NCBI GenBank assembly: GCA_023053685.1
Contig: JALIGW010000014.1
Location: 18,075,308-18,139,307 of the forward strand
Reading direction: 5' to 3'
From: Diadophis punctatus similis
Lineage: Eukaryota > Chordata > Lepidosauria > Squamata > Dipsadidae
Length of the DNA stretch: 64,000 nt
Shown here: positions 36,240 through 38,176 of the stretch, one piece after another
Numbering within the stretch: the first letter of the stretch is position 1
How the letters are laid out: every line of letters begins with the position of its first letter
Position numbers and translations under genes: made by a program
The notes under the pieces: generated by a model
What the model saw: only the letters and a program-made list of their open reading frames with translations
The model's database searches: none
What the model was told of the DNA's origin: nothing

Positions 36240-36505
36240 CTTAGAACATATAGAATAATAAATAGGTCTTCTAGTCCAACTACCTGCTCAAGCAGGAAAC
36301 CCTATACCAGTGGTTCCCAAACTTTTTCAGTCCACCGCCCCCTTGGTGCTACAAACTCATCCTCACTGCCCCCTATCCCACCCCCTCAGGTGGGCGTGGC
36401 TTAGTGGTCAGGTGACCAGGTGGGCGTGGCCAACTTGTAAAGTGTGGTGAAACTCACTTAACAACGCTCTTGCTTAGCAACCAAAATGTTAGGCTCAATT
36501 GTGGT

Positions 36506-37225
36506 CATAAGTCTTTCGTTCTTTCTTTCTTCTCTACCTTCCCCCTTCTTTCTTTCTTTTTCTTTCTGTCTTTCTTCCTACCATCTTTCTTTTTCTTTCT
36601 TTCTTTTCTTTCTTTCTGTCTGTCTTCCTTCTTTCCTACCATCTTTTTCTTTCTGTCTGTCTTCCTTCCTTCCTACCATCTTTCTTTCTTCCTCCCTCCC
36701 TCCCTCTTTCTTTCTTTTTTCTTTCCTTCTTCCCTCCCTTCCCTTCCCTCCCTCCTTTCTTTTTCTGTCTGTCTGTCTGTCTGTCTGTCTGTCTGTCTTC
36801 CTTCATTCCTACCATCTTTCTTTCTGTCTTCCTTCCTCCCTCTTTCTTTCTTTCCTTCTTCCCTCCCTTCCCTTCCCTTCCCTTCCCTTCCCTCCCTCCT
36901 TTCTTTTTCTGTCTGTCTTCCTTCCTTCCTTCCTACCTTCTTTCTTTCTTTCTTTCTTTCTTTCTTTTTCTTTCTTTCCTTCTTCCCTCCCTCCCTCCTT
37001 TCTTTTTCTGTCTATCTCCCTTCCTTCCTTCCTACCATTGTTCTTTCTCTTCTTTCTTTCTTTCTTTCTTTCTTTCTTTCTTTCTTTCTTTCTTTCTTTC
37101 TTTCTTTCTTTCTTTCTTTCTTTCTTTCTTTCTTTCTTTCTTTCTTTCTTTCTTTCTTTCTGTCTTCCTTCCTTCCTCCCTCTTTCTTTCCTTTTTCTTT
37201 CCTTCTTCCCTCCCTTCCCTTCTCT
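36506..37225. repeat. (TTTC)n/(TTCC)n imperfect microsatellite
   Basis: About 700 bp of pyrimidine tetranucleotide repeats, with CTGT runs at 36765-36797 and a pure TTTC block at 37040-37160. The long Phe/Leu-Ser and Lys/Glu-Arg frames over it are artefacts of the repeat. Confidence 0.97.
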
Positions 37226-37261
37226 CCCGCCAGCTGTGGCCAGGCCGCCGCCGCCGCTCAC

Positions 37262-37460
37262 CCAGGCCGATGGCTTGGTAAGCATTCTCTGGATCATGCA
37301 CCAGGTCGCAGAGTGCCATCAAGACTGGCTGCCGCGTGAGAAACTCAGGGTGCTGCAGCTCTTCATTGAGCTTGGGGAGGCCTCGGCGGCCAAAGGCCAC
37401 AGGCGCCTTGGTGGGGTCGATGTCGGGGGGCAGCTGGGCTGAGATCCGCGGGTGCGCCAT
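37262..37460 (-). pseudogene. RSPH14: RSPH14 (radial spoke head 14) first coding exon, captured fragment
   Basis: On the minus strand an ATG at 37460-37458 opens a 66-codon frame with one extra base: MAHPRISAQLPPDIDPTKAP, then GLPKLNEELQ, LTRQPVLMALCDLVHDPE and NAYQAIGLG. This matches the N-terminus I know for vertebrate RSPH14 (RTDR1), an armadillo-repeat protein of ciliary and flagellar radial spokes. The frame has no stop or indel. At 37261 it meets GTGAGC, a consensus 5' splice donor in phase 1, and only about 30 bp of intron-like sequence remain. Keeping an intron edge indicates DNA-level capture, not a retrocopy. It lies inside a hAT element with TSDs, so it is not the resident gene. 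Without further exons it cannot make a radial-spoke protein. Confidence 0.88.
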
Positions 37461-37494
37461 GCCGGAGGGGAGCCCGCTGAATTGCGTGTGCTGG

Positions 37495-37507
37495 GTTGCT
37501 AGGCGCC
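37495..37507 (-). promoter_or_regulatory. RFX X-box-like motif upstream of the captured RSPH14 start
   Basis: Minus strand GGCGCCTAGCAAC matches the palindromic RFX consensus GTTGCCTAGCAAC at 11 of 13 positions, with one half-site perfect. It lies about 35 bp upstream of the ATG, in CpG-rich DNA. RFX X-boxes are usual in promoters of ciliary genes, so it fits a captured RSPH14 promoter. Activity is not shown. Confidence 0.6.
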
Positions 37508-37634
37508 GGGGACGCCGGGCGGGAAAGTCCGTGCATGCACAAGTTCCGCAGCAGGGCCTTCCCGCGGGTCTGCGAGCGCTCTCCCAAGCAGCTTTGGGAG
37601 CAGTCGGCTTCCCTCGTCGCTGTGCCGTGTTCAG

Positions 37635-37779
37635 TACCTAGCACTTGTAACTCCGTCGCATTCCATGCTCTTGGGTGCAGGGCAGCCCATTCTGAAAGAA
37701 AACATCTCGTGTTTTCTTTCAGAATGGGTTGCCCTGCACACAAGAGCAAGGAACGCGAGAGAGCTTCAAGTGCTAGGTA
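37635..37779. repeat. Palindrome 1 in the RSPH14-carrying hAT
   Basis: TACCTAGCACTTG... and the inverted ...CAAGTGCTAGGTA enclose arms of about 70 bp meeting at GAAAGAAAACATCTCGTGTT. Nearly the same palindrome lies at 37897-38033. Confidence 0.9.
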
Positions 37780-37896
37780 GGACGCCTGTCGCGTGGTGGG
37801 ACACAGTTTGGGGTGACCAGTTGTGCGGGGTGTGGTGGAGCGGAGCCTGGGCAGGGGCTGGGCGGGGGCTGAGCGGGCCGCGAGACGGGCATCATA

Positions 37897-38033
37897 CCTA
37901 GCACTTGTAACTCCGTCGCATTCCACGCTCTTGTGTGCAGAGCAGCCCATTCTGAAAGAAAACATCTCGCGTTTTCTTTCAGAATGGGCTGCCTTGCGCA
38001 CAAGAGCGAGGAACGCGAGGGAGCTTCAAGTGC
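37897..38033. repeat. Palindrome 2 in the RSPH14-carrying hAT
   Basis: A second copy of the previous palindrome with a few substitutions (for example CTCGCGTTTTC at the centre). Confidence 0.9.
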
Positions 38034-38176
38034 AAAAGCATGGCGAACCACCTACCGCCCCCCTGGCCCTTCTCACCGCCCCCCTGTCACCACCCTTGCC
38101 TCTCACCGCCCCCCTAAGGGTTCCCACCGCCCCCTGGGGGGCGGTACCGCCCACTTTGGGAACCACTGCCCTATAC

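What the first reader, a model, noticed from the sequence alone, without database searches (positions are those of the whole stretch)
36308..38168. A hAT transposon has captured the first coding exon of the ciliary gene RSPH14
A 1,861-bp element with hAT ends and perfect CCCTATAC TSDs contains, in antisense, an intact 66-codon frame matching the RSPH14 N-terminus. It starts at its ATG and ends at a consensus GTGAGC splice donor in phase 1. Retained intron edge and upstream DNA mean genomic capture. A mobile unit with start codon, exon and donor could make fusion transcripts wherever it lands, a possible route to new genes or N-termini. Seen: ends, TSD, frame, donor. Known: RSPH14 is a radial-spoke protein. 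Inferred: capture and its possible effect.
Basis: partly seen in the sequence, partly recalled or inferred. Interest (0 to 1): 0.93.

Follow-up and report, generated by a model that had tools for sequence, protein, structure and literature searches.

The report
Snake transposon carrying a captured exon
A small cut-and-paste transposon, probably in a snake genome, holds a copied piece of the cilia gene RSPH14 (DNA just before the gene, its first coding exon and the start of the next intron), but the copy looks decayed and gene-carrying transposons of this type are already known in animals.

Summary
Window 36308-38168 is a 1,861-bp unit with perfect 14-bp inverted ends (CAGTGGTTCCCAAA) and flanking CCCTATAC duplications. 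Joining the flanks gives an uninterrupted LINE copy: 12 other places in the window align across the junction without the insert, 5 of them with an exact CCCTATAC. Inside, on the minus strand, lies exon 1 of RSPH14 (37460-37262, phase 1) with about 174 bp of upstream DNA and a short piece of intron 1. Crotalus adamanteus RSPH14 differs at 3 of 66 residues. An unspliced contig protein, P0019, matches the upstream region and the intron edge. No other RSPH14 exon was found in the window. This is a genomic fragment inside a hAT-type element, a "Pack-TIR", a class already described in animals: 370 cases, 208 in hAT (PMC8277862). The copy looks unconstrained: its three differences fall on conserved residues, two of them unique among 169 relatives. 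The interior is a patchwork, and a second hAT-like element next door shares the target duplication. Not shown: other copies, transcription, splicing, or mobility after capture. The whole-genome search was tried nine times and never answered.

The parts
36264..36299 (.). Left flank: end of the LINE stretch into which the unit inserted (CR1-like by recall)
   Evidence: Matches LINE copies elsewhere in the window; LINE family name is recalled, from no call
36300..36307 (.). Target site duplication CCCTATAC, copy 1
36308..36321 (+). Left terminal inverted repeat CAGTGGTTCCCAAA
   Evidence: Perfect complement of 38155-38168
36308..36387 (+). Left end of the hAT-type element (E1)
   Evidence: TIR plus about 65 bp with no other match in the window
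36390..36430 (.). Fragment of a dispersed GTGGGCGTGG-type repeat inside E1
   Evidence: 87.8% to 26745-26785
36438..36510 (.). Truncated dispersed repeat inside E1
   Evidence: 82% to 61460-61388; 4 of 4 compared copies continue with a GAGGA-type sequence where E1 switches to the microsatellite
36511..37239 (.). CTTT-type microsatellite and pyrimidine-rich stretch inside E1
   Evidence: TRF 36512-37207, period 4; right edge read by eye
37245..37261 (-). Edge of RSPH14 intron 1, starting with donor GTGAGC (37261-37256)
   Evidence: Reads GERRRR as in P0019, then diverges; exact breakpoint not resolved
37262..37460 (-). Captured RSPH14 coding exon 1 (66 codons + 1 base, ATG at 37460)
37461..37634 (-). 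Captured DNA upstream of the RSPH14 start codon
   Evidence: P0019 residues 57-118 match 37637-37458 at 67.7%, E 3.8e-21
37495..37507 (-). X-box-like (RFX) site, one mismatch, 35 bp upstream of the ATG; suggestive only
   Evidence: 6 such sites in the window, 4.67 expected by chance; consensus recalled
37635..37779 (.). Palindromic repeat 1, bounded by TA on both sides
37780..37894 (.). G+C-rich spacer between the palindromes, source unknown
   Evidence: 72% GC
37895..38033 (.). Palindromic repeat 2, 94% like repeat 1
38034..38168 (+). Right end of E1
   Evidence: Only self match in the window
38155..38168 (-). Right terminal inverted repeat
38169..38176 (.). Target site duplication CCCTATAC, copy 2, shared by E1 and E2
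38177..38306 (.). E2: 130-bp palindromic hAT-like element inserted at the same site
   Evidence: a relative at 11061-11156 is flanked by GTCTATAG on both sides
38307..38314 (.). Target site duplication CCCTATAC, copy 3
38315..38504 (.). Right flank: continuation of the same LINE
   Evidence: Up to 82% to other LINE pieces in the window, in register with the left flank

Best explanation
E1 is a non-autonomous hAT-type element, inserted with an 8-bp duplication into an old LINE copy, whose interior holds a genomic fragment of RSPH14: about 174 bp upstream of the start codon, the whole first coding exon and the first ~17-30 bp of intron 1. It is a Pack-TIR. Shown: ends, TSD, empty site, exon identity and phase, upstream and intron homology, patchwork interior. 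Inferred: the fragment was copied from the native gene by template switching during repair or replication of the element. I slightly favour copying in place after insertion (about 0.55) over arrival of an already loaded element by transposition (about 0.45). Also inferred: the copy is an unconstrained relic that at most lends a promoter, 5' exon or splice donor to antisense-of-window transcripts by accident.
For: Perfect TIRs and CCCTATAC TSD. Empty site: 12 of 20 alignments cross the junction without insert. Exon 95.5% to Crotalus adamanteus RSPH14. P0019, which continues upstream of the capture point and reads through the donor without splicing, matches upstream DNA up to 37637 and the GERRRR intron edge. 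tblastn of human, PDB 9fqr-derived and 4 snake RSPH14 proteins finds only exon 1 in the window (weaker rows all had E 0.34 or worse). Window-only residues F40 and P45 occur in 0 of 169 relatives and V46 in 1 of 169. Interior made of pieces of at least two dispersed repeats, a microsatellite, the RSPH14 piece and two palindromes. No transposase domain in 7 of the 12 ORFs of 110 aa or more that overlap E1; the 5 not tested are microsatellite frames. hAT Pack-TIRs with exonic cargo are described.
Against: Beyond the first 14 bp the two ends differ, and neither end has another copy in the window, so that both belong to one named hAT family is not shown. Native gene DNA of this species was not seen, so parent identity is at protein level. 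P0019 being the native locus is inferred from its sequence; its record gives no organism. The interior contains much besides the captured piece.
Confidence: 0.87

Rival explanations
1. The loaded element arrived here by transposition: capture happened elsewhere and E1 moved as a unit with its exon, so that sister copies exist.
For: TSD sits exactly at the ends of the whole loaded unit and the empty site is clean. The parent exon is not within 36 kb on one side or 26 kb on the other, unlike the 56.9% of published cases that lie within 15 kb of the parent.
Against: Only 4 (1.4%) of the published Pack-TIRs were multicopy. No second copy could be searched for. The window holds no other copy of either end.
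Confidence: 0.4
2. This is the native RSPH14 first exon, with hAT-like ends beside it by coincidence or a transposon-moved functional exon.
For: Open frame, correct ATG, donor and phase, upstream DNA kept. Exons beyond the window edge cannot be excluded directly.
Against: The whole unit is absent from the matching LINE copies. Homology to P0019 stops at 37637 upstream and within about 30 bp of the donor. Three changes at residues conserved in the relatives. No exon 2 in the 36 kb downstream.
Confidence: 0.03
3. A retrocopy or chimeric cDNA picked up by the element.
For: None found.
Against: Unspliced intron edge and upstream non-transcribed-like DNA are present.
Confidence: 0.01
4. The captured first exon is expressed and spliced to neighbouring sequence, giving a new ciliated-tissue or testis transcript.
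For: Promoter-proximal DNA, ATG and donor are all inside; X-box-like site 35 bp upstream of the ATG; CpG-rich, 30 CpG in 379 bp, reached by 11 of 2,545 sliding windows, some of which overlap the piece itself. In 10 transcribed human cases the cargo was co-transcribed with flanking TE.
Against: X-box-like matches are not enriched in the window (6 seen, 4.67 expected). Donor score is common. Coding changes at conserved sites. Unspliced, the frame runs into a Lys/Glu/Arg microsatellite tail. No expression data were available.
Confidence: 0.12

Closest known systems
Animal Pack-TIRs, in particular Pack-hAT (Tan et al. 2021, PMC8277862; I read the abstract and sections 7, 8, 9, 10 and 14, plus passages)
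   Same: TIR element with TSD, host sequence inside, genomic (not intronless) source, exonic cargo (13.4% of theirs are exonic), hAT the commonest superfamily (208 of 370).
   Different: Here the cargo is a complete first-exon cassette (upstream DNA, ATG, exon, donor) among several other filler pieces, and a second hAT-like element shares the TSD. Their size filter (internal sequence 80-120% of the parental copy) would probably pass over it.
Pack-hAT-N8_XT carrying the CAPSL 5' UTR in western clawed frog (same paper)
   Same: A hAT element carrying a 5'-end fragment of a host gene.
   Different: Three copies with distinct TSDs are shown there; copy number here is unknown.
Ssk-FB4 in Drosophila (same paper)
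   Same: Gene piece with upstream DNA caught inside a TIR element.
   Different: Nearly the whole gene is captured, it is multicopy, transcribed and under selection; FB4 is MULE-like, not hAT.
Buster-type hAT MITEs such as Mar (PMC3517528, passages only)
   Same: 8-bp TSD fitting nnnTAnnn (CCC-TA-TAC here; GTC-TA-TAG for the E2 relative), short TIRs, non-autonomous.
   Different: No host gene cargo described in the passages seen; family link here rests on TSD shape alone.
Plant Pack-TYPE elements / Pack-MULEs (PMC8903248, search listing only)
   Same: Non-autonomous DNA transposons carrying gene fragments.
   Different: Plants; often many copies.

Membership tests
hAT superfamily | 8-bp target site duplication | tested here: met
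   CCCTATAC on both sides, empty site clean
hAT superfamily | Short TIRs (5-27 bp in the passage seen) with hAT-like start | tested here: met
   14-bp perfect TIR CAGTGGTTCCCAAA; length range from PMC3517528 passage; the CAG start as a hAT mark is recalled
hAT superfamily | Encodes or is mobilised by a hAT transposase | tested here: inconclusive
   No transposase domain in 7 of 12 ORFs of 110 aa or more overlapping E1, as expected for a non-autonomous copy; autonomous partner not searchable
hAT, Buster group | TSD of form nnnTAnnn | tested here: met
   CCCTATAC fits; one TSD alone is weak evidence
Pack-TIR | Host sequence of 100-5,000 bp between two TIR ends of the same element | tested here: inconclusive
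   RSPH14 piece of about 390 bp lies between perfect 14-bp TIRs with one TSD; that both ends belong to one consensus element not tested (no repeat library)
Pack-TIR | Parental copy elsewhere, unique, not itself flanked by TEs, at least 90% DNA identity | not testable with these tools
   Parent seen only as proteins (P0018, P0019); the genome search unreachable. P0019 and P0002 frames after the donor resemble an E2-type repeat, so a TE may lie near the parent
Pack-TIR | Not a retrocopy | tested here: met
   Intron edge and upstream DNA retained
Pack-TIR | Captured piece makes up 80-120% of the interior (filter of PMC8277862) | tested here: not met
   About 390 of about 1,800 bp is RSPH14; the rest is repeats, microsatellite and palindromes. 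This is a screening filter for recent clean captures, not a definition
Multicopy Pack-TIR | Several loaded copies with distinct TSDs | not testable with these tools
   The genome search did not complete (9 tries)
Native RSPH14 locus | Exon 1 colinear with exon 2 onward | tested here: not met
   Only exon 1 found in 64 kb; DNA beyond the window not seen

The most novel reading that the evidence does not exclude
E1 is one of a family of loaded hAT copies that spread an RSPH14 first-exon cassette (RFX-responsive promoter, start codon, exon and donor) through a viperid genome, so that several loci transcribe testis or ciliated-cell mRNAs starting with an RSPH14 N-terminus spliced to new downstream exons.
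Probability: 0.06. Interest if true: 0.75.

Novelty: new member of a known kind. Interest (0 to 1): 0.36.

Why it matters
It is a clean, checkable case of host-gene capture by a cut-and-paste transposon in a squamate, with start codon, promoter-proximal DNA and donor all in one piece. If loaded copies proved multiple and transcribed, it would be a natural test of whether DNA transposons seed new first exons. As it stands, one decayed copy adds an example to a published class of hundreds. The two hAT-type elements that share one target duplication are a small extra on sequential insertion.

Tried and rejected
Rejected: native RSPH14 exon (empty LINE site, homology breaks on both sides, no exon 2 in the window); retrocopy (intron edge kept); chance TSD (third TSD copy and empty site). 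Led nowhere: aligning the two E1 ends beyond 14 bp (one search printed a trivial alignment); the TIR string in full-text papers (0 papers); RSPH14 exon in viral contigs (16 stretches matched a pattern, none a relative); Rfam and tRNA scans of the window (none); Pfam on 7 ORFs in and around E1 (one weak RPC4 match, E 0.02, below its cut-off). The X-box-like site is kept only as a suggestion (looked at a 1-base spacer only). A literature search pairing RSPH14 with transposon or snake listed 20 of 323 papers, and none of those 20 mentions RSPH14. I do not claim that this case is absent from print.

Limits: the 169 relatives come from capped, 90%-clustered lists (one search listed 120 of 167), include partial and predicted proteins, and are not independent. 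Synonymous change could not be counted, because no native DNA was available; relaxed constraint is inferred from three amino-acid changes only. The species of the window is unknown; 'viper-like' rests on exon 1 (3 differences to Crotalus adamanteus P0018 and to unnamed P0002, 4 to unnamed P0019, 5 Laticauda, 6 Naja of which 2 are gaps, 7 Candoia, 8 Erythrolamprus).

Full report
What is there. The unit 36308-38168 is 1,861 bp, begins and ends with a perfect 14-bp inverted repeat CAGTGGTTCCCAAA, and is flanked by CCCTATAC on both sides. Directly after it lies a 130-bp palindromic element (38177-38306) closed by a third CCCTATAC. A relative of this second element at 11061-11156 is flanked by GTCTATAG on both sides. 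Both duplications fit the form nnnTAnnn that the Mar paper gives for Buster-type hAT elements (PMC3517528, passages). So two hAT-like elements sit in tandem and share one target duplication; which came first cannot be told from the sequence.

Empty site. When the DNA left of 36308 is joined to the DNA right of 38314, the join reads as one uninterrupted stretch of a LINE that is common in the window. Of 20 alignments of the joined flanks to the window, 2 are the locus itself, 12 cross the junction with no insert, and 6 do not reach across it. Of the 12, 5 carry an exact CCCTATAC, 6 carry diverged forms and 1 has a 5-base deletion there. This shows that the 2 kb in question were inserted at that site. 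It does not show whether E1 already held the exon when it inserted. I call the LINE CR1-like from recall, not from a call.

The exon. The minus-strand frame 37460-37262 is 66 codons plus one base. It matches human RSPH14 at 53.7% over 67 residues (E 6e-19), two PDB RSPH14 chains, and Crotalus adamanteus RSPH14-like P0018 at 95.5% (E 2.5e-40). In P0018 and Laticauda P0054 the protein continues with exon 2 (FLENL, FLDNL) exactly where the window reads into GTGAGC, so the phase-1 boundary is right. The donor is ordinary: its crude score of 6 of 9 is reached by 1,050 of 6,330 GT sites in the window.

Genomic capture. P0019 is an unnamed contig protein whose frame starts upstream of the RSPH14 ATG and runs past the donor without splicing. 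Its residues 57-118 match window 37637-37458, upstream of and up to the ATG, at 67.7% (E 3.8e-21), and both read GERRRR after the exon before they diverge. Upstream of 37637 P0019 has no match in the window at E 0.39 or better, and there E1 switches to a palindrome. So the captured piece spans roughly 37245-37634, about 390 bp, and comes from genomic DNA, not mRNA. That P0019 is the native locus is inferred from its sequence. Its frame and that of P0002 after the donor resemble an E2-type repeat, so the native intron may carry a similar element; this is a reading by eye.

Not the native locus. tblastn of human RSPH14 and a PDB-derived relative and of four snake RSPH14 proteins finds exon 1 and nothing else convincing in the 64 kb; the next-best rows have E 0.34 and 0.71. 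The minus-strand DNA downstream in the window is 36 kb long. Exons further away were out of reach.

Constraint. Against 169 RSPH14-like proteins from three capped searches, the window residue F40 occurs in 0 (L in 160), P45 in 0 (R in 149) and V46 in 1 (A in 168). Snake proteins differ among themselves at 0 to 8 of the 66 positions, but all seven snake-type sequences agree with each other at 40, 45 and 46. The nearest are P0018 and P0002 (3 differences each). This is what a copy freed from selection should look like, but three changes are few and synonymous change could not be counted.

Patchwork interior. From left to right: about 80 bp of left end with no other copy in the window; a piece of a GTGGGCGTGG-type repeat; a truncated dispersed repeat, where 4 of 4 compared copies continue with a GAGGA-type sequence while E1 jumps to a CTTT microsatellite; some 700 bp of microsatellite; the RSPH14 piece; two near-palindromes of 145 and 139 bp, 94% alike, with a G+C-rich spacer; and the right end. 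Folded as single-stranded DNA the palindromes give -147.8 kcal/mol, z -18.6, matched by 0 of 100 shuffles. Such a mosaic suggests repeated template switching. No transposase domain was found in 7 of the 12 ORFs of 110 aa or more overlapping E1; the other 5 are microsatellite frames and were not scanned.

Mechanism. Tan et al. (PMC8277862; abstract, sections 7-10 and 14 and passages read) describe 370 Pack-TIRs in 100 animal genomes, 208 of them in hAT elements, 13.4% exonic, and only 4 multicopy cases. They infer that most single-copy cases arose by gap filling after insertion; 56.9% lie within 15 kb of the parent. Here the parent is not within 26-36 kb, which removes the commonest proximal form but not distal gap filling. 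From these base rates I put in-place filling at about 0.55 and arrival as a loaded unit at about 0.45.

Possible effect. The piece keeps promoter-proximal DNA, ATG and donor. It is CpG-rich (30 CpG in 379 bp, reached by 11 of 2,545 sliding windows, some overlapping the piece itself) and has an X-box-like site 35 bp upstream of the ATG. Such one-mismatch sites are not enriched in the window (6 seen, 4.67 expected), and the consensus is recalled. If transcribed without splicing, the frame runs on into a microsatellite-coded Lys/Glu/Arg tail. Splicing to a neighbour could not be tested.

Verdict. Observation confirmed; capture supported; mobility with cargo and functional effect not shown; a new member of a known kind.

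Noticed in passing
38177-38306: A second hAT-like palindromic element shares the CCCTATAC duplication with E1, so one element inserted into the other's target duplication. Related pieces occur at several other places in the window.
   Followed up: partly
37635-37779 and 37895-38033: Two near-palindromes, 94% alike; the first is bounded by TA on both sides, as a TA-targeting miniature element would be, the second is truncated at one end. Source unknown.
   Followed up: partly
15498-19044: Series of plus-strand frames with weak reverse transcriptase and RNase H matches, below Pfam cut-offs; looks like a decayed DIRS-like retroelement (name recalled).
   Followed up: partly
34549-35322: Tandem array with a 335-bp G+C-rich unit, 2.3 copies, 92% matches.
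   Followed up: no
P0002 and P0019 (unnamed contig proteins): Frames after the RSPH14 exon 1 donor resemble an E2-type repeat, which suggests that the native intron 1 carries such an element in related snakes.
   Followed up: no
10371 and 10391: Two CCCTATAC copies 20 bp apart in one LINE copy, perhaps the trace of an excised or decayed insertion.
   Followed up: no
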